This document shows positions 12,745 through 29,059 of a stretch of 29,059 nucleotides of DNA, piece after piece (position 1 is the first letter of the stretch; every line of letters starts with the position of its first letter). This DNA comes from a virus, in IMG/VR virus record IMGVR_UViG_3300024273_000421, positions 1-29,059 of that record. One strand, written 5' to 3'. Below the pieces are notes generated by a model. It ran no database searches. It was not told where the DNA came from and saw only the letters and a program-made list of their open reading frames with translations. A program made the translations under genes and the position numbers.

Positions 12745-12945
12745 ATGATTGATATCATATTAGTAAGTATATGTTGGGCAATAGCAGGTATTATTTGTAT
12801 ATATTGTGTGGATAAAAAAGCTTACAACGAGGGTATAGTTGATGCGGTTATTATGCACAGTGAGGGTAAATTAACTTATGAGTTCTATGAGGATGAGGAC
12901 AAAAAAGAAATACTTGAGATAAAGAGGGCCAAACATGAAGACTAA
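12745..12945 (+). CDS. small N-terminally anchored membrane protein, 66 aa
   Basis: The ATG immediately follows the MazG-like stop. Residues 3-22 form one hydrophobic helix (DIILVSICWAIAGIICIYCV), then a soluble tail with YNEGIVDAVIMHSEGKLTYE and an acidic-basic end. Similar small proteins with a membrane anchor and an M-H-x-x-G-x-L-T-Y motif occur in other phages without known function. It overlaps the NrdA start by 11 bases. Confidence 0.7.
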   Translation: MIDIILVSICWAIAGIICIYCVDKKAYNEGIVDAVIMHSEGKLTYEFYEDEDKKEILEIKRAKHED

Positions 12946-14719
12946 ATACTTAGGTATTACTATAGATAGAGAGCGGGATAAGACAATGACGCCTCAGTCA
13001 TTAGAATTAGTTAAGGGGTACTACCTACATAAGAATGAGAAGTCACCACAGGAAGCATATGCTAGAGCATGTGTGGCCTATAGTGGTGGTGATAATTTAT
13101 TGGCCCAACGTTTATATGATGCCATTAGTAACGGTTGGTTTATGTTTAGTAGCCCAATACTTAGTAATGCACCTGCTCCAGGGGAGGTAGCTAAAGGTTT
13201 ACCTATAAGTTGTTTCTTATCTTATGTACCAGATACACTAGAGGGTCTTATAGACCATCAAGCAGAGATGGCTTGGTTATCTGTTAAAGGTGGTGGCGTA
13301 GGTGGGCATTGGTCTGATGTTCGTGCGGTAAGTGATAAAGCACCCTCACCTATACCATTCATTAAAGTGGCTGACTCAGCGATGACAGCTTACAAACAAG
13401 GTAAAACTAGGAAGGGTAGTTATGCAGCTTATATGGACATCAGTCATCCAGATGTGGTTGAATTCCTCAATATACGTATTCCTACGGGGGGCGACAGTAA
13501 CCGTAAGTGCTTTAACATTAATAATGCTCTTAATATTACCGATGATTTTATTAATCGTGTCATTAGCGGTGGTTATTGGAATCTTGTTGATCCTCACGAT
13601 GGTGGTTACAGAGAATCAGTAAACGCTAGGGAACTATGGGAACGTATTTTAGAAACACGCTTTAGAACTGGTGAACCTTACCTTAACTTTATTGATGAGG
13701 CTAACCGTAAGTTACCTCAGGAACTTAAAGATAAAGGCCTAGAGATTAAAGGTAGTAATCTATGTAATGAAATACATTTACCTACTAATGCAGAGAGAAC
13801 AGCAGTATGTTGCCTTTCTAGTGTTAATCTTGAAAAATTTGATGAATGGAAAGATACATCATTGGTAGCTGATTTAATTACCATGTTAGATAATGTACTA
13901 ACCTGTTTCATAAATGATGCTCCTTCTTCTTACATGCGTAAAGCTATACTATCGGCCACGAGAGAACGTTCTTTAGGTTTAGGTGCTATGGGTTTCCATG
14001 CATTCCTACAGTCTAAAGGTATACCATGGGAATCAGCATTAGCCGTTGGTCGTAACAAACAGATGTTCTCATTAATTAAAGAGCAAGCTGTTGCAGCAAC
14101 CGAGGTTTTAGCTAAGGAACGAGGGGAGTACTTAGATGGTGAGGGTAGTGGCAGACGTAATTCACACTTACTAGCTATAGCACCTAATGCTAACAGTGGT
14201 ATGATACTAGGGACATCCCCCAGTATTGAACCTATTAAGTCCAACAGTTTTGTACATAAGACACGTATTGGTTCTCATTTAATTAAGAACAAATATCTTG
14301 AGACTTTAATGGAAGAGCAGCGTCTACGTCTTGGTAAGGATGAGGAGTGGTTAGTTAAGGAGTGGCGAGGTATAGGACACCATCAAGGTAGTGTTCAACA
14401 TTTAGAATACCTATCAGATTGGGATAAGGATGTATTTAAAACTGCATTTGAATTAGACCAACATTGGGTAGTACAGCATGCCGCAGATAGACAAGAGTAC
14501 ATCTGTCAAGGGCAATCAGTAAACTTATTCTTTCCTGCGGGCTCGGATAAGAACTATGTTAATACTGTACATATTAAGGCTTGGAAAGGGAAACTTAAGG
14601 GTTTATATTACCTACGTACTAGTGCAAATTCTAGTGCTGAGAATCTTGGTAAAAGCGTAGTACGTGTAGCATTAAAAGACTTTATGGAGGAAGACGAGTG
14701 TTTAGCTTGTCAGGGGTAA
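12935..14719 (+). CDS. nrdA: class I ribonucleotide reductase, large (alpha) subunit, 594 aa
   Basis: It reduces ribonucleoside diphosphates to deoxy forms with the NrdB radical. Catalytic residues are present: Cys93 (PISCFLS) and Cys292 (AVCCLSSVNL) as the redox pair, Asn275-Cys277-Glu279 in GSNLCNEIHLP as the active-site triad, and a Tyr-Tyr pair in KGLYYLRT for radical transfer. The C-terminus ends CLACQG, the CxxC tail (589 and 592) that thioredoxin or glutaredoxin re-reduces. At 594 residues it is much shorter than E. coli NrdA (761), and the N-terminal ATP-cone is absent, so dATP inhibition is probably lost. It lies upstream of nrdB with three bases between the genes. Confidence 0.96.
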   Translation: MKTKYLGITIDRERDKTMTPQSLELVKGYYLHKNEKSPQEAYARACVAYSGGDNLLAQRLYDAISNGWFMFSSPILSNAPAPGEVAKGLPISCFLSYVPDTLEGLIDHQAEMAWLSVKGGGVGGHWSDVRAVSDKAPSPIPFIKVADSAMTAYKQGKTRKGSYAAYMDISHPDVVEFLNIRIPTGGDSNRKCFNINNALNITDDFINRVISGGYWNLVDPHDGGYRESVNARELWERILETRFRTGEPYLNFIDEANRKLPQELKDKGLEIKGSNLCNEIHLPTNAERTAVCCLSSVNLEKFDEWKDTSLVADLITMLDNVLTCFINDAPSSYMRKAILSATRERSLGLGAMGFHAFLQSKGIPWESALAVGRNKQMFSLIKEQAVAATEVLAKERGEYLDGEGSGRRNSHLLAIAPNANSGMILGTSPSIEPIKSNSFVHKTRIGSHLIKNKYLETLMEEQRLRLGKDEEWLVKEWRGIGHHQGSVQHLEYLSDWDKDVFKTAFELDQHWVVQHAADRQEYICQGQSVNLFFPAGSDKNYVNTVHIKAWKGKLKGLYYLRTSANSSAENLGKSVVRVALKDFMEEDECLACQG

Positions 14720-14722
14720 TAT

Positions 14723-15673
14723 ATGTTATTAGAAGAGAGTAAAGTTTATAAACCCTTTAAACATGCTTGGGCTGTAGAGTATGCAGAACAACATGAAGAT
14801 TTACATTGGACTGAGAAAGAGATTAACCTTAGTGATGATGTAACTCAGTGGAAAGATGGTACGCTATCGGATTCTGAGAAGAACCATATCACTCAGATAC
14901 TTAGGTTATTCACTCAGTCCGATGTAGTGGTCGCAGGTAACTACTGTAACTACTACATACCTAAGTTCTTGAATAATGAGGTGCGTATGATGTTAATGTC
15001 ATTCGCAGCTAGGGAAGGTATTCATGCCAGAGCTTATGCATTACTTAATGATACGTTAGGACTACATGAGAAAGAGTATAGTACCTTCTTAGAGTATGAT
15101 GCCTTAGCTGAGAAAGTAGAATTCATGAAGGATGCTGATGTACACTCCATACATGGGACAGCTAAAGCATTAGCTTTAACCGTGTTCAATGAGGGTGTAA
15201 GTCTATTCAGTGCATTCGTTATGTTATTAAACTATCAACGTATGGGTAAGATGAAGGGTATGAACACCGTCATCGAGTGGTCAATCAGAGATGAGACATT
15301 ACACACAGAGGGTATGTCACGTTTATTTAGAGAGTTTTGTAATGAACATGGGAGAATTGTCAATGATAGTTTCAAAAAAGAAATCTATGAGATGGCGAGA
15401 CAGATTGTTGAGTTGGAAGATAAGGTTATTGATCTTGCATACACGGCTGGTGATGTTGAAGGTCTCGATAAAGGTGAGGTTAAAACGTATATCCGCTATT
15501 TGGCAGACAGACGTTTAATACAGATGGGTCTCAGAGGTAACTTTGGTATTAAGGAAAACCCTTTACCATGGGTCGAAGAATTAACCAGTGGTGATAGTAT
15601 GTCAAACTTCTTTGAGAAGACCGTGACGGACTATAGTGCCGTTGGTATGACTGGTGATATTGTCTGGGAATAA
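14723..15673 (+). CDS. nrdB: class I ribonucleotide reductase, small (beta) subunit, 316 aa
   Basis: It forms the di-metal cofactor and radical for NrdA. The ligands can be assigned: Asp67, Glu98 and His101 (EGIHARAY), Glu157 (VFNEGVS), and Glu191 and His194 (RDETLH). Tyr105 lies four residues after His101, the same spacing as the radical Tyr122 in E. coli, so a tyrosyl-radical enzyme is likely. It is the last gene of the replication and nucleotide block. No terminator follows; the next element is promoter copy 3. Confidence 0.96.
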   Translation: MLLEESKVYKPFKHAWAVEYAEQHEDLHWTEKEINLSDDVTQWKDGTLSDSEKNHITQILRLFTQSDVVVAGNYCNYYIPKFLNNEVRMMLMSFAAREGIHARAYALLNDTLGLHEKEYSTFLEYDALAEKVEFMKDADVHSIHGTAKALALTVFNEGVSLFSAFVMLLNYQRMGKMKGMNTVIEWSIRDETLHTEGMSRLFREFCNEHGRIVNDSFKKEIYEMARQIVELEDKVIDLAYTAGDVEGLDKGEVKTYIRYLADRRLIQMGLRGNFGIKENPLPWVEELTSGDSMSNFFEKTVTDYSAVGMTGDIVWE

Positions 15674-22940: not shown

Positions 22941-25900
22941 ATGATATCTGATAAGGTATTTAATACTACAGGCACACAAAGAATCTTTGGGTCGGACTTT
23001 AAGATTATATCTGAGGACCACCTTCGGGTGTTCTTAGATGGCGTAGTAGTCTCTAGAGATGATTACGACTTAATAAATAATGCTGCTATATTTAATGTAG
23101 CTCCTCTAACAGGACAAAAATTATTTTTACAAGTAGGTACTACCCCTGCTGATATACTAGACTCTCCTACAGACATAGGTATAGTATCAGCTAATATAAG
23201 TGATGTTAATCTTGTTGCTTCTAAGCTCGCGGCATTAAGCTCTCTCTCAGATGTAGCCGCTATTAGTGCGTTAAAAGATGATGTAACCGCTTTATATGGA
23301 GAGTTTAAAGATGATTTTGCTGGGCAGGGGAATACACTCCCTCTTATAGAGAATGATGGTACATTATTTTATTATTCTGGCCCAGACTTCTTCAATGGTT
23401 TATATATATACTATACAAATAATCCTATAGCTAACACAGGTAAATGGCGTATTGTAGGTATAGGCCCTCAAGGCCCTCAAGGCCCCGAAGGTATCCAAGG
23501 TAATATAGGGCTACAAGGTATCCAAGGTGAAACTGGTACGACAGGTATCCAAGGACAGCAAGGTATTCAAGGCCCCATGGGTGACACTGGTATCACAGGT
23601 ATCACAGGTGCCACAGGTCCCACAGGTCCTCAAGGTGTCCAAGGTGTCGTAGGTCCTGAGGGTGCTGTAGGCCCAGATGGTCCACAAGGTATCCAAGGTA
23701 ACATTGGTATTACAGGTGATGAGGGTCCTTTAGGTCCTACAGGCCCTTCTGGTGCCACAGGTCCCACAGGGCCTACAGGCCCCACAGGTCCCCAAGGTAT
23801 TCAAGGTGAGATTGGTTTATTAGGAGCAGCAGGCCCTACAGGGCAGCAAGGTATTCAAGGTACTCAGGGTGATGAAGGTCCTACAGGCTCTACAGGTCCT
23901 ACAGGTAGTATAGGTGCCGTAGGCCCTACAGGTAGTACAGGTGCTATAGGCCCAGATGGTCCACAAGGTACCCAAGGTATTCAAGGTGAGTTAGGTAATT
24001 TAGGTCCTACAGGTCCTCAAGGCCTTATAGGTGTAGATGGTCCCCAAGGTATTCAAGGTCTTACAGGTGATTTAGGGCCTATAGGTGCTACAGGTGCTAC
24101 AGGTTCTTTAGGACCTACAGGTTCTACTGGTCCTATTGGTTTTACTGGACCACAAGGTGCTTTAGGTACTACAGGTGCCACAGGTGCTCAAGGCCTTATA
24201 GGTGTAGATGGTCCCCAAGGTATTCAAGGTGACCAAGGTGACTTAGGTAATACAGGTACTACAGGTTCACCTGGACCTACAGGTGCTACTGGTCCTACAG
24301 GACCACAAGGTGCTTTAGGTAATATAGGTTACACAGGTTCTACGGGACCCCAAGGTATCCAAGGTAACCAAGGTATCCAAGGTATTGAGGGGCAATCCTT
24401 CACCTTGGATGAAGTAGGTACATTAGCAGGGCGCTCAACCTTTGATTCAGAAGTGTTGGGATTCTCTTACTATGCTACAGATTACAGTGTAACAGCTAAC
24501 GTATCTCCAGATTATGAACGTTTCACTGGTGATAATTCAACAGTTTCTTTCGCACTCCCTTTTATCCCTGATGGGCCTCAATCTATAAGTGTTACAGTAG
24601 CAGGGGTATTACAGACACCTGATATGTACACAGTTACTGTAGTTGTATCCCCTGAAAGTTATACTATTACCTTTAATGAGGCTCCTGCTGCAGGCGCTAC
24701 TATAGCAGTACGTGAATTCAGTATTGCTACAGGTTATGGTGCCTTATTTCTTAAAGAATCTAATACTAGTGGTGATTGGGGACCTGCTATACCTTTTGGT
24801 AAAGGTCCTCGTGGTACCCAAGGTAGTATAGGTATTACAGGTAGTACAGGTCCTCAAGGCGCTACAGGTGATACAGGTCCTTTAGGTCCTCAAGGTCCTC
24901 AAGGTATACTAGGTCCTCAAGGCGCTGTTGGTTCAACAGGTCTTACGGGGAGTATAGGCCCTACAGGTAACCAAGGTATTGCAGGTAGCCAAGGCCCTAC
25001 AGGTAGTACAGGTATTCAAGGTATCGTAGGGGATACTGGTCCAGAAGGGCCTCTAGGTCCTCAAGGTATCTTAGGACCGCAAGGCGCTGTTGGTTCAACA
25101 GGTCTAACAGGGGATACAGGTGCCGTAGGTGCCCAAGGTACCCAAGGTGACCAAGGCCCTACAGGTAGTACAGGTATTCAAGGTCTCATAGGGAATACTG
25201 GTCCAGAAGGGCCGCTAGGTCCTCAGGGTATAATAGGACCTCAAGGCTCCGTAGGTATACAGGGTGCTGTAGGTGATACAGGTGCAACTGGTTCAACAGG
25301 TGACACAGGTATTACAGGGCCGCAAGGCTCAGTAGGTATTCAAGGTCCTCAAGGTGACTCAGGTCCTATTGGTATCCAAGGTGAACAAGGTATACTAGGG
25401 GGTACAGGTCCCCAAGGTGCTACAGGTTTAGTAGGCCCACAAGGTGCAGTAGGTGTTACAGGTGACACAGGTGCTATTGGTTCTATAGGTCCTCAGGGAG
25501 CTACTGGTACTGAAGGTATTAGAGGGCCAACAGGTTCCACTGGTCCCCAAGGTTCCGCAGGTATCGTAGGGCCACAAGGTGCTACAGGTGATTTAGGGCC
25601 ACAAGGTCAGATAGGTGATGTAGGCTTAAGAGGTCCCACTGGTATCCAAGGTCCTGAGGGGGCTAAAGGAACTACAGGTGACCAAGGTTTACTTGGTGTT
25701 ACAGGTGCTACAGGTCCTCAGGGTCCTCAAGGGCCTATAGGGGACCAAGGTTTAGTTGGTTTACAAGGTGCGCTAGGTGGCGATGGTCTCGATGGTGCTA
25801 ATGGTACTGATGGTACTGATGGTGCTGATGGTCGGAGTTCTAGTGGTAAGGTATATATATTCCCTGTTACGTTCTTTCCTGACGGAGACACTACTGTAAA

Positions 25901-26246
25901 GACTTTATTTACTTTTAATGTTACTAATACACAAGCCTTTGACCGTACCTTAATGTTATCTAATATTAAAGTTGACTCAACATCTACTATACCTGGGGAT
26001 TTTGAAACTCTTTTAAGATTAGATATAACACTAACTTATGATGGGGGAGCACATTCAGTAATATGGTTATATCGTAATTTCGGCAACCCTTCTGAACACG
26101 TAGTATCAAAAAACATGGTAAACTTACCTGCAAACAAAACAGGTGTAGTTACAGTAACTGGGTACGCTGTTATTAGTCAAAGAGAAGTAAAAACATATGG
26201 TAAGCTACTTGTTGAGATATTACCTAATTCAACAGAGTTATCTTAA
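22941..26246 (+). CDS. tail fibre with two collagen-like triple-helix regions, 1101 aa
   Basis: Residues 1-120 resemble the tail-attachment domain of T7 gp17-like fibres ([20 protein letters not shown]). Residues 175-486 are about 104 unbroken Gly-X-Y triplets and residues 622-966 about 115 more, rich in GPQ, GPT, GIQ and GAT. Between them is a 135-residue globular part (487-621) in which a fibre module (GFSYYATD at 507-514, then [16 protein letters not shown] ending at 622) is split by an inserted beta domain (about 520-597) similar in pattern to the N-terminal domain. Residues 967-1101 are a C-terminal domain that may trimerise or bind receptor. Collagen-like segments are known in phage fibres as trimeric stalks. 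The gene starts 11 bases after the nozzle gene. Confidence 0.93.
23463..24395 (+). repeat. collagen-like Gly-X-Y coding repeat, tract 1
   Basis: This is nine-base periodic DNA coding about 104 in-phase Gly-X-Y triplets with frequent GGTCCTACAGGT, GGTATTCAAGGT and similar units. Near-identical segments recur (for example [13 protein letters not shown] twice), so unequal recombination could change stalk length without breaking the frame. Confidence 0.9.
24804..25838 (+). repeat. collagen-like Gly-X-Y coding repeat, tract 2
   Basis: The tract codes about 115 in-phase Gly-X-Y triplets. A longer unit of about 40 residues, containing [10 protein letters not shown] and PTGSTGIQG, recurs between about 24,990 and 25,250, which suggests block duplication. 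The end shifts to Asp-rich triplets ([10 protein letters not shown]). Confidence 0.9.
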
Positions 26247-26255
26247 GGATAAATA

Positions 26256-29059
26256 ATGACAGATAAAATACAAGATGCAGGTTTAGTCAACCCCATCTCA
26301 GAGGCTGCCCAGGCAGCATTAGACTTAAAAGTTGATACAACTGGGGGTACTATTACTGGTAGCCTAGAGGTAGTTGGGGATTTAACTGTATCAGGTACAA
26401 CTACAACTATAAGCGCAGTTAACTTAGCTCTTGCGGATAATATGATTTACCTAAATGATGGTAATGCGACAGTTAACCCAGATATAGGTTTTGCAGGAAA
26501 TTATAATGATGGGACTTACGCGCACACTGGGGTGTTCCGTGATGCAACAGATGGCGCTTGGAAGTTCTACGATAGTTACACACCAGAGCCAGATGCTTCT
26601 CCATACATTGATGCAGCCCATGCCTCATTTAACCTTGCTCCAATTGAAGCTGGTCCAATTACTGCTACAGATTTCATCGGGCCTTTAAATGGAGCTGTTC
26701 AATTTACAGCTAAGAACGCTGAAGGTATTGCAATTACTAAAGGTCAGGCGGTATACATCAAAGGTGTCTCTGGCGATGTAGCTACGGTAGGTCTTGCTGA
26801 TGCTAATGATAGTGCTAAGATGCCTGCCTTCGGTTTAGTTGCTGCTAATGCTAATAATAATGCAGAAGTGAAGATTGTAACCTTTGGTTCTCTTGTAGAT
26901 ACTAAGACAGATTATACTGGGTGGGCTTTTGGGGATACCTTATATATCTCTACAACTCCAGGTTTACTAACTAATAGTGCCCCTGCAGGTGAAGCCTCTA
27001 AAATCCAGAACATTGGTAAGGTACAGAGAGTTCACGCTTCTGCAGGTATCATTAGAACAGGTGGTGCAGGGCGTACTAACGCTACTCCAAACTTGGATGA
27101 TGGTAATGTATTCATTGGTAACGCAAGTAATCAATCAGTACCTAGAGCTTTAGTTGTTGCAGATACTACAGGCTTACAGACTGAACTAGATGGTAAGGTT
27201 GATGATAGTCAGGTGTTGACTGATGTTCCTTCAGGTGCGGTATTTACAGATACTACTTACTCAGAGGGAGATGGTGGGCTTTCACAAAAGAACTTTACTA
27301 CAACTCTAAAAACTAAGTTAGATGGTATAGCTACAAGTGCGAACAATTATGTTCTTCCTGCTTCTGTTGTGCATGATACTGAAAAGAGTGCATTGCATAT
27401 ATCAGATGCTTTACGAATCAGTGGTCATACTATTTCTTTGTATAAAGGTGATGGTACGTCTGAATCTGTTACTGTTCCTGATAATAATACTGATACTAAT
27501 ACTTGGAGGCCAGAATATGTATTACCTGCTTCTGTTGTGCATGATACTGAAAAGGGAGCTTTACATGCAACTGACGCTTTAAGAATTTCTGGTCATACTA
27601 TAAGTTTATACAAAGGTAATGGCACATATGAATCTGTTGTTGTTCCTGATAACAATACTGATACTAACACTTGGCGTGGACTAGGTACTACTTCAACTAC
27701 AGCTTGTGCAGGTAATGATTCTAGATTAAGTAATGCTAGAACTCCTACTAGTCATACTCATAGCTATGTATCAGAAGGTGGTACATCTTTCAATGGTGAA
27801 TATCCGATAGCCGTTAGAGTCTCAGCTAATAGCTTCTATTCGGATAATAATATAAGATTCAGAGGTTCTGATTCTAGGTTAAGTGTTGATGGTAGTGTAC
27901 TTATTTCTAACAACACCGCGTGGCACGCAGGTAACGATGGTTCAGGTTCTGGACTAGATGCTGACTTACTTGACGGTAAACAGGCTTCTCAGTTTGCTTT
28001 AGCTCATAGTCATCCTTACTTACCTACTTCTGGAAAAGCTGCTGATTCTAATTTGTTAGATGGTATTGATTCGACTGGGTTTAATGCAATCCTTGCTCGA
28101 TATGTAACAACAGCAGGTAGTAGCGGTAGAATTAAAATACGATTACCGTGGAATACTAACACAAATAAGATGTTTAAGTTTTCCATTTCTCAGTATAGTA
28201 GCTATACCCAACACTCGTATGAAGTGAGTGCTTATATGTATAGTTCAACTAACCAATGGTATTCACCTAAAGTTGTGTATTCAGGTACAGGCGCTCCTGA
28301 TATCCTTGTTGGTAGGGATGCAGATGGTAGGGCTTATGTGAGCATTGCTAATGGTAGTTATACTGGTGTTATAGTCCATAGTTTTGTGAGTGCATACTTA
28401 GCATCTGTAGCTGATGGCTATAACCAAGGGTGGTCTATCGCTGTAGATGCTACGACACCAAACAGTATTACTCCTGCTATTACTAACATATGGACAAGCA
28501 CTAACGATGGTTCTGGTTCTGGTCTAGATGCTGATTTACTTGACGGTAAACATGCTTCTGCTTTTGCTTTAGCTCATAGTCATCCATATGCTCCTACTAG
28601 TCATACTCATAGCTACTTACCATTAAGTGGTGGAACACTGACTGGCAATCTGTCAATAGGCACATACAATACCACAAATACGGGGACATTGATTTTAAAT
28701 GGCTCTACTGTCAATAAACAAGCGGCTTTAAAGTGTACTAATGGTAATTTACATATGGATGCCAACACTAACAATACTATGTACCTAAACTATTATAGTG
28801 GTTCAGGCGTCGCGTTTGGTAATGGCAGCTCGCTGGTGAAGGCATGGATGGGTAATGATGGGGATTTATGGAAAGGCCCTTCAGATAATAGTGGCAGTAA
28901 ATATTGGCACGCTGGTAACGATGGTTCAGGCTCAGGATTAGACGCTGATTTATTAGATGGTAAACAGGCTTCTCAGTTTGCTTTAGCACATAGTCATCCA
29001 TACTTACCAATTGCAGGTAAAGCTGCTGATGCTAACTTGTTGGATGGTGTGAATGGTGC
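26256..29059 (+). CDS. second tail fibre / receptor-binding protein, at least 934 aa, 3' end beyond window
   Basis: ATG 26256 follows AAGGATAAATA, and the frame is open to the last base. It begins DKIQDAGLVNPISEAAQAAL, then a module of about 120 residues from NAEGIAITKGQAVYIKGVSG (near residue 152) that I recognise in other phage structural proteins. TKLDGIATSANNYVLPASVV belongs to a common fibre repeat (LDGIxxxAxNY). Two tandem 53-residue repeats follow at 27348 and 27516, then three copies of GNDGSGSGLDADLLDG...LAHSHPY, a widespread tail-fibre motif. The call rests on these repeats and on the position after the collagen fibre. How it attaches, and whether it ends in a self-cleaving chaperone, cannot be seen. 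Confidence 0.85.
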   Translation, partial: MTDKIQDAGLVNPISEAAQAALDLKVDTTGGTITGSLEVVGDLTVSGTTTTISAVNLALADNMIYLNDGNATVNPDIGFAGNYNDGTYAHTGVFRDATDGAWKFYDSYTPEPDASPYIDAAHASFNLAPIEAGPITATDFIGPLNGAVQFTAKNAEGIAITKGQAVYIKGVSGDVATVGLADANDSAKMPAFGLVAANANNNAEVKIVTFGSLVDTKTDYTGWAFGDTLYISTTPGLLTNSAPAGEASKIQNIGKVQRVHASAGIIRTGGAGRTNATPNLDDGNVFIGNASNQSVPRALVVADTTGLQTELDGKVDDSQVLTDVPSGAVFTDTTYSEGDGGLSQKNFTTTLKTKLDGIATSANNYVLPASVVHDTEKSALHISDALRISGHTISLYKGDGTSESVTVPDNNTDTNTWRPEYVLPASVVHDTEKGALHATDALRISGHTISLYKGNGTYESVVVPDNNTDTNTWRGLGTTSTTACAGNDSRLSNARTPTSHTHSYVSEGGTSFNGEYPIAVRVSANSFYSDNNIRFRGSDSRLSVDGSVLISNNTAWHAGNDGSGSGLDADLLDGKQASQFALAHSHPYLPTSGKAADSNLLDGIDSTGFNAILARYVTTAGSSGRIKIRLPWNTNTNKMFKFSISQYSSYTQHSYEVSAYMYSSTNQWYSPKVVYSGTGAPDILVGRDADGRAYVSIANGSYTGVIVHSFVSAYLASVADGYNQGWSIAVDATTPNSITPAITNIWTSTNDGSGSGLDADLLDGKHASAFALAHSHPYAPTSHTHSYLPLSGGTLTGNLSIGTYNTTNTGTLILNGSTVNKQAALKCTNGNLHMDANTNNTMYLNYYSGSGVAFGNGSSLVKAWMGNDGDLWKGPSDNSGSKYWHAGNDGSGSGLDADLLDGKQASQFALAHSHPYLPIAGKAADANLLDGVNG
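27348..27674 (+). repeat. two tandem 159-bp repeats in second fibre gene
   Basis: Copies at 27348-27506 and 27516-27674 (period 168 bp, 9-bp spacer) each encode 53 residues from YVLPASVVHDTEK to DNNTDTNTW. They are in frame and close in protein sequence, with mostly synonymous or conservative differences, so the duplication is fairly recent or under selection. Confidence 0.85.
27921..29009 (+). repeat. three dispersed repeats of the GNDGSGSGLDADLLDG fibre motif
   Basis: Copies lie at about 27921-28023, 28498-28590 and 28905-29009. The first and third start Trp-His-Ala-Gly-Asn-Asp; the second starts Thr-Ser-Thr-Asn-Asp. Each runs through LDADLLDGK to ALAHSHPY. The His-rich ends may bind metal in the trimer, as in other phage fibres with H-x-H motifs; that is inference. 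Confidence 0.85.

What the first reader, a model, noticed from the sequence alone, without database searches (positions are those of the whole stretch)
24390..24806. Beta domain inserted inside another fibre module between two collagen stalks
Residues about 493-514 (ending GFSYYATD) and 598-621 ([20 protein letters not shown]) read like two halves of one module common in phage fibres. Between them is a 70-80 residue domain ([10 protein letters not shown] to REFS) with the same pattern as the N-terminal attachment domain. A domain nested in a domain and set between two long triple helices would make a hinge, a node or a branching point in the fibre.
Basis: partly seen in the sequence, partly recalled or inferred. 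Interest (0 to 1): 0.55.

Follow-up and report, generated by a model that had tools for sequence, protein, structure and literature searches.

The report
Domain nested inside a collagen-like fibre
A virus of bacteria carries a long collagen-like tail fibre with one small domain inserted inside another halfway along it, and comparison with related viruses suggests, without proving it, that the insert is the socket onto which a second receptor-binding fibre is plugged.

Summary
The nesting is real. In the 1101-aa fibre (22941-26246), residues 484-514 and 599-622 are two halves of one ~55-aa module, set between collagen runs of 104 and 115 triplets. Profiles made only from uninterrupted modules match the halves at 41 and 39 bits; the best of 1000 shuffles gave 5 and 3. 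Among 78 modules the gap between halves is 0-8 aa in 64 and 76-85 aa in 14. The insert has the predicted jelly-roll fold of T7 gp17-N and CBA120 TSP4 XD2, a branching domain. New here: the gene after a nested fibre starts M(x)D[KRIV]I[QK] in 12 of 14 cases against 0 of 45 after uninterrupted fibres (looser motif: 14 against 4). Vibrio phage VP41s3 lacks the insert and also the two genes that follow the ICP2 fibre. In L012 and L014 a short tag replaces a long N-terminal region. Best reading: a mid-fibre docking node for a second fibre. Binding is not shown; independent evolutionary contrasts are too few to decide; no trimer could be modelled. New variant of the known anchor-branched systems.

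The parts
22941..26246 (+). tail fibre gene, 1101 aa, collagen-like
   Evidence: translation; PF01391 309.8 bits
22941..23462 (+). N-terminal region (residues 1-174): presumed virion anchor, then a short GLYIYY...GKW module just before the collagen
   Evidence: PF03906 E 0.084 (weak); phrog_24456 at residues 1-52, E 7.6e-7; BLAST: the part before the collagen is shared with L002, L003, L012, L014, L045, L117
23463..24398 (+). first collagen stalk, 104 Gly-X-Y triplets (residues 175-486)
24390..24482 (+). left half of the host (clamp) module, residues 484-514
   Evidence: profile of uninterrupted modules, 40.9 bits
24483..24734 (+). inserted jelly-roll domain with its linkers, residues 515-598 (aligned fold core about 519-596, 24495-24728)
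24735..24806 (+). right half of the host module, residues 599-622
   Evidence: 39.1 bits for 600-622
24804..25838 (+). second collagen stalk, 115 triplets (residues 622-966)
25839..26243 (+). C-terminal domain, residues 967-1101; no detectable relation to the C-termini of the other nested lineages
26256..29057 (+). next gene, second fibre-like protein (934 aa, runs off the fragment), the proposed docking partner
   Evidence: tail fibre families
26256..26273 (+). proposed N-terminal docking tag MTDKIQ

Best explanation
The fibre is a homotrimer: N-terminal anchor, long collagen helix, compact clamp module, second collagen helix, C-terminal domain. The clamp is a ~55-aa phage module that on its own recurs between collagen segments and looks like a trimerisation element. 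Here a jelly-roll domain of the T7 gp17-N / TSP4 XD2 type is inserted in the turn of its beta-hairpin, which works because the ends of that jelly roll are adjacent. Three copies held by the clamp would make a lateral socket mid-fibre. The protein of the next gene, a second fibre or spike, docks there by its short N-terminal tag M(x)D[KRIV]I[QK], giving a branched receptor-binding complex. Shown: the nesting, the predicted folds, the tag and its association with the insert. Inferred: that the fibre and the node are trimeric, that the tag binds the insert, and the branching itself.
For: Nesting and two gap classes. Models: nested pLDDT 84, unbroken module pLDDT 86 with the corresponding flank elements. 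The insert matches T7 gp17-N (Z 7.8-9.7) and CBA120 TSP4 184-253 (Z 8.5-8.8); by the linkers given in the paper that range is XD2, a jelly roll with antiparallel adjacent ends in a region that binds other tailspikes (passages and section 9 of PMC8825819). Strict tag after 12 of 14 nested and 0 of 45 testable uninterrupted fibres. Fibre-sized control: of 155 ORFs of 350 aa or more with a ribosome-site-like start, 13 rows (11 genes) carry the strict tag and all 11 genes follow nested fibres. L117 was fetched after the idea was noted and carries the tag MLDRIQ. Downstream proteins fall into several groups with no BLAST relation while sharing the start; 7 of 10 scanned match at least one tail family. 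ICP2 versus VP41s3: alike N-terminus, proximal C-terminus and flanking genes, but VP41s3 lacks the insert and has no gp24 or gp23 in between; it is not among the 25 records with a gp23 match, all listed. In L012 the homologous body begins at residue 14-18 against 243-549 in four other phages; L014 at 15-24 in three of the four. C-termini of ten nested lineages: 0 of 45 pairs over 50% probability, the best 13%. A T7-type N-terminus alone (Pasto, Lo5R7ANS) comes without the tag.
Against: No physical contact is shown. The tag is 5-6 residues. L036/L037 deviate (MTDLLVNG) and miss the strict rule; a looser motif that takes them in gives 14 of 14 nested but also 4 of 45 uninterrupted. On the module tree only 2 supported independent contrasts exist (4 on all branches): with the strict tag one agrees and one does not differ, with the looser coding about 1.9 of 2 agree; neither can reach significance. 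A single origin of the insert is not rejected (p-AU 0.146), so the Fisher p of 8e-11 is inflated by relatedness. Many uninterrupted fibres have no second fibre gene beside them, so they control poorly for the tag itself. The second tagged gene of L117 matches a common fibre N-terminal domain and is not independent evidence. One nested fibre, L048, has no collagen at all. The fold is not specific to docking: T5 and DT57C neck-region proteins match at Z 8.2, and Foldseek gave only one hit below E 0.001. In CBA120 TSP2 also bound a TSP4 fragment lacking XD2. VP41s3 also differs in its distal C-terminus.
Confidence: 0.6

Rival explanations
1. Passive node: the insert only thickens or stiffens a registration clamp between two collagen helices, as a joint or hinge, and binds nothing; the downstream tag is carried along by linkage.
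For: The unbroken clamp itself recurs between collagen runs: 10 of the 35 uninterrupted modules have at least 0.9 Gly-phase on both sides. E. coli prophage EPclB fibres are described with a globule between two collagen stalks (PMC3368898, passages). Few independent contrasts link insert and tag.
Against: Does not explain why bodies of downstream proteins change while the start stays, the joint absence in VP41s3, or the tag standing in the place of a long N-terminal region.
Confidence: 0.2
2. Second anchor: as a T7 gp17-N fold, the insert binds the virion again and holds the fibre folded up against the tail or capsid.
For: Fold match to fibre anchor domains of T7, P-SCSP1u, Kp9 and Kp7 (Z 9.7 to 6.7).
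Against: The same nested module occurs in phages of different kinds (T7-like window, Zobellviridae ICP2, a 130-kb Vibrio phage), whose tails would all need the same socket (inference); the tag association is left unexplained.
Confidence: 0.08
3. The insert is a receptor- or glycan-binding decoration in mid-fibre.
For: Beta-sandwich decorations are common in phage fibres (recalled). A review says that changes in ICP2 gp25, a nested fibre, alter host range (PMC10264812, passages; the original paper is not held).
Against: The fold is one of assembly domains, and the insertion site is the same in all 14 nested modules. Neither excludes receptor contact.
Confidence: 0.07

Closest known systems
Anchor-branched receptor-binding systems of phages (G7C, K1-5, Klebsiella KP32 group A): T4gp10-like docking domain plus conserved peptide
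   Same: A docking domain in the first fibre, and a second receptor-binding protein with a short conserved N-terminal peptide in place of an anchor (PMC6872550, passages).
   Different: In the passages the docking domain lies by the N-terminal anchor; here it is nested inside another module, mid-fibre, between two long collagen helices. The paper says its peptides differ by phage group; the tag here is shared across several groups.
CBA120 TSP4 XD2/XD3 and T4 gp10
   Same: Same jelly-roll fold by model; the paper gives XD2 and XD3 as the binding sites of partner trimers (PMC8825819, passages and section 9).
   Different: In TSP4 the domains follow one another near the N-terminus and are not inserted in a host module. 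TSP2 binds by its own XD2 domain, a TSP4 fragment without XD2 also bound TSP2, and the role of the TSP1 N-terminal 13 residues is unknown.
T7 gp17 N-terminal domain (PF03906)
   Same: Predicted fold of the insert (Z up to 9.7) and a weak sequence match.
   Different: Position internal, not N-terminal; bit score below the family's cut-off.
EPclB collagen-like prophage fibres of E. coli
   Same: Two collagen domains with a non-collagen element between them (PMC3368898, passages).
   Different: The element there is a Pf2 repeat; no nested domain is described in the passages seen.
Collagen XV/XVIII trimerisation domain
   Same: Among the nearest structures to the host module: Z 3.9-4.5 over 52-56 residues and the top Foldseek rows, not significant (E 0.4-0.8).
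   Different: The top aligned row is another protein (Geobacillus virus E2 ORF18, Z 4.8), such low Z may mean only a common arrangement, and no match by sequence profile was found.

Membership tests
Anchor-branched receptor-binding system | T4gp10/XD2-like docking domain in the first fibre | tested here: met
   by predicted fold: Z 8.5-8.8 to CBA120 TSP4 184-253, which is XD2 by the linkers given in PMC8825819
Anchor-branched receptor-binding system | second receptor-binding gene with a conserved N-terminal peptide | tested here: met
   12 of 14 against 0 of 45 (looser 14 against 4); 7 of 10 scanned partners match a tail family, the window's among them
Anchor-branched receptor-binding system | N-terminal anchor domain on the first fibre | tested here: inconclusive
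   window N-terminus PF03906 E 0.084; relative L002 7.5e-22
Anchor-branched receptor-binding system | second protein physically bound to the docking domain | not testable with these tools
   no complex could be predicted or measured
PF03906 Phage_T7_tail (insert) | whole-protein score above the curated cut-off | tested here: not met
   22.1 against 25.2 bits
PF03906 Phage_T7_tail (insert) | gp17-N fold | tested here: met
   7ey9 Z 9.7, 7boz 8.9, 8e4g 8.3, 9jz0 7.9, 7ey7 7.8
PF03906 Phage_T7_tail (insert) | N-terminal position | tested here: not met
   residues 515-598 of 1101
PF13799 DUF4183 (insert) | score above the curated cut-off | tested here: not met
   20.3 against 25.1 bits for the 138-aa stretch
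Collagen XV/XVIII trimerisation domain (host module) | same fold | tested here: inconclusive
   Z 3.9-4.5, Foldseek E 0.4-0.8
Collagen XV/XVIII trimerisation domain (host module) | sequence relationship | tested here: inconclusive
   not among the PDB profile hits nor the Pfam hits
Collagen triple helix PF01391 | Gly-X-Y repeat above cut-off | tested here: met
   309.8 bits, 11 stretches

The most novel reading that the evidence does not exclude
A transferable branching cassette for phage fibres: an XD2-type socket threaded into the hairpin of a collagen-trimerisation clamp that resembles the collagen XV/XVIII trimerisation domain, paired with a short address tag M(x)D[KRIV]I[QK] that unrelated spikes acquire in place of their own anchors, in at least three phage groups including the V. 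cholerae phage ICP2.
Probability: 0.4. Interest if true: 0.75.

Novelty: new variant of a known kind. Interest (0 to 1): 0.6.

Why it matters
It would give a sequence-readable rule for which spike hangs on which fibre in collagen-fibre phages, add a mid-fibre branching point to the N-terminal ones described, and suggest a role for globules between collagen stalks. It bears on ICP2, whose gp25 is a nested fibre that a review ties to OmpU recognition. It offers a small testable pair (a ~140-aa node and a short peptide) and a natural empty-site control, VP41s3.

Tried and rejected
One continuous domain: rejected by the empty-site modules and the two-unit model. Docking on the C-terminal domain as the common rule: disfavoured, since C-termini of ten nested lineages show no relation (one search was a first attempt whose parser printed nothing). 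Docking on a T7-type N-terminus: disfavoured, since Pasto and Lo5R7ANS have one without the tag. Homology of the host module to collagen XV/XVIII by sequence: not found. PDB sequence search with the nested stretch: nothing useful. Phylogenetic test of insert against tag: too few contrasts to decide.

Dropped before counts: two apparent gaps of 113 and 115 aa (L074, L098), which bridge separate modules; ten uninterrupted fibres with too little downstream DNA. In one search the traits were coded by hand, and one fibre called untestable there (L059) was coded as lacking the tag. Several loci are the same contig fetched again; modules were counted once per identical sequence, but near-copies (L036/L037, L002/L003, L006/L016) count apart. 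The 46 loci were a hand-made list of uninterrupted loci, not all of them. A notebook entry calls chain 5iv5_A T4 gp10; I did not verify that and do not use it. Another lists the L117-type evidence before L117 was known only as a prediction to test.

Not found in print: eight searches of the held library. Only the listed titles and abstract starts were seen (up to 15 rows each, of up to 509 papers); none of them describes a nested docking domain in a collagen fibre or this tag. Subscription papers are mostly not held, Lim et al. 2021 among them.

Full report
WHAT IS THERE. The window is a 29,059-base virus record, possibly a fragment, of a T7-like podovirus: phage RNA polymerase, primase/helicase, DNA polymerase, ribonucleotide reductase, head-tail adaptor, head assembly protein, major head protein, tail protein. 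The finding lies in the gene after the tail protein, 22941-26246, 1101 aa. It has 104 uninterrupted collagen triplets (175-486), a non-collagen stretch (484-622), 115 more triplets (622-966) and a C-terminal domain (967-1101). A second fibre-like gene starts at 26256 and runs off the fragment.

THE TWO HALVES ARE ONE MODULE. A query of the two flanks without the middle found the module unbroken in phages of Rhizobium, Erwinia, Mesorhizobium and Vibrio. The whole 138-aa stretch was found with its insert in ICP2-group phages and in Vibrio phage 1.101.O: 14 of 40 matching records cover at least 80% of the query. With profiles for the halves I listed 80 paired modules in the loci then held; two are bridges between separate modules and were dropped. 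The remaining 78 fall into two classes: 64 with 0-8 residues between the halves and 14 with 76-85. A profile from the 64 alone scores the window's halves at 40.9 and 39.1 bits, against at most 5.0 and 3.0 in 1000 shuffles. In an earlier set, 10 of 35 uninterrupted and 4 of 13 nested modules have at least 0.9 Gly-phase in the 60 residues on both sides, the window's among them; one nested fibre, L048, has no collagen. So the collagen setting is common but not universal.

FOLD. The nested stretch modelled with 37 sequences gives mean pLDDT 84 but pTM 0.54, so the relative placing of the two parts is unsure. The strands before and after the insert (E29-36, E119-125) correspond in sequence to the strands E29-32 and E37-41 of the unbroken module modelled alone (pLDDT 86); that they pair as a hairpin was not read from coordinates. 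In the structure library the alignments covered the insert (model 39-116): LME-1 tail Z 10.0, T7 gp17 N-terminus 7.8-9.7, cyanophage P-SCSP1u 9.0, CBA120 TSP4 residues 184-253 at 8.5-8.8, but also neck-region proteins of T5 and DT57C at 8.2. Foldseek had one hit below E 0.001, LME-1 at 6e-4; the T7 entries lie at E 0.05-0.23 with probability 1.00. By the linkers given in PMC8825819 the TSP4 range is XD2. The paper calls XD2 and XD3 jelly rolls with adjacent antiparallel ends and the binding sites of partner tailspikes, though TSP2 also bound a fragment without XD2. Adjacent ends are what a domain needs to be threaded into a hairpin. The unbroken module's near structures include collagen XV/XVIII trimerisation domains at Z 3.9-4.5 and Foldseek E 0.4-0.8; the top aligned row is a Geobacillus virus protein at Z 4.8. 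This is suggestive only and was not seen by sequence profile.

THE NEXT GENE. In nested loci the following gene begins M(x)D[KRIV]I[QK]. Counted by script within -30 to +250 nt of the fibre stop: 12 of 14 nested and 0 of 45 testable uninterrupted (55 fibres, 10 without enough downstream DNA), Fisher p 8e-11; a looser motif gives 14 of 14 and 4 of 45. The two strict misses are a near-identical pair starting MTDLLVNG. Among 973 ORF starts with a ribosome-site-like sequence in the loci then held, 12 carry the strict motif; 11 of them are the first or, once, the second gene after a nested fibre, and one (L083) is not. Among 155 ORFs of 350 aa or more with such a start, 13 rows (11 genes) carry it and all 11 genes follow nested fibres. 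In 46 uninterrupted loci (424 kb) the only ORF of 100 aa or more with it is the L083 one. L117 was fetched after the hypothesis was noted and fits: MLDRIQ. Its second gene MIDKIQFKR matches a common fibre N-terminal domain, so I give it no weight. By BLAST the downstream proteins are related within L012/L014, within L002/L003 and within the ICP2 group, with parts of the 1.101.O protein shared with the ICP2 group; no other relation passed E 1e-3 among the 14 compared. Of 10 scanned, 7 match at least one PHROG tail family (window, L003, L045, both L117 genes, L005, L006), two (L012, L002) only families of unknown function and one (L068) none.

TWO NATURAL EXPERIMENTS. ICP2 has gp25 (nested fibre), gp24 (MVDKIQ), gp23, gp22, gp21, gp20. 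VP41s3 has a fibre alike at the N-terminus and the proximal C-terminus, no insert, then directly the homologues of gp22 (63% over 27 aa), gp21 (68%) and gp20 (90%). It is not among the 25 records that match gp23, all listed; the gp24 search listed 40 of 125 records, so there I rely on the locus. Insert, gp24 and gp23 are thus absent together. The distal C-terminus differs too, so the contrast is not clean. Second, the L012 partner body starts at its residue 14-18, where four other phages have 242, 307, 381 and 548 residues before it; L014's starts at 15-24 in three of the four. A long N-terminal region is replaced by a short tag, or the other way round.

LIMITS. On the tree of the joined halves (55 columns, many forks unresolved) the insert needs four changes, two forced by well-supported branches. 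VP41s3 lies inside the main nested group, which reads as a loss, with weak support; L036/L037 lie with uninterrupted modules on a supported branch and L048 elsewhere on a weak one, which reads as separate gains; one origin is not rejected (p-AU 0.146). Only two supported independent contrasts are available, so insert and tag cannot be shown to have changed together beyond chance and descent. The better argument is that unrelated bodies keep the same start.

COMPARISON. It works like the anchor-branched systems of G7C, K1-5 and Klebsiella phages: docking domain plus conserved peptide on the second protein (PMC6872550, passages). Two defining features are met, binding is untested, and the window's own anchor is inconclusive. 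What differs is the place (mid-fibre, between collagen helices), the nesting inside another module, and a tag shared by several phage groups. A review says that changes in ICP2 gp25, with help from gp23, alter infection of OmpU mutants (PMC10264812, passages); where in gp25 they lie I could not read.

VERDICT. Observation confirmed; nested domain established from sequence; docking node for a second fibre the best explanation at 0.6; new variant of a known kind.

Noticed in passing
window 24836-25347: Period-162 DNA repeat (54 aa) in the second collagen stalk, 2.5-2.8 copies at 78-82% match: the stalk may lengthen by unequal exchange.
   Followed up: no
window 27357-27674: Period-168 DNA repeat (1.9 copies, 82%) inside the second fibre gene.
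   Followed up: no
window 23331-23462, residues about 131-174: A second small module ([10 protein letters not shown]...GLYIYYTNN...GKWRIVG) directly before the first collagen run, shared with L002, L003, L012, L014, L045 and L117 at 32-59% identity; possibly another collagen-starting clamp.
   Followed up: partly
window 12935-15673: Large and small subunits of a ribonucleotide reductase in a T7-like phage.
   Followed up: no
L010 (VP41s3) residues about 205-570: Five copies of a short module (W-x-G...R-F...W-G-x-W/Y-x-D-L type) alternating with collagen in the VP41s3 fibre; two in ICP2 (read by eye).
   Followed up: no
L027, L050, L053, L055, L056: A class of unbroken modules with six extra residues in the same hairpin turn (ATDHV...GTGSLF), grouping on the tree with nested L036/L037: either a precursor or a scar of the insert.
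   Followed up: partly
L019, L040, L109, L110: Fibres with two copies of the unbroken module; collagen lies between them in L019 and L040.
   Followed up: no
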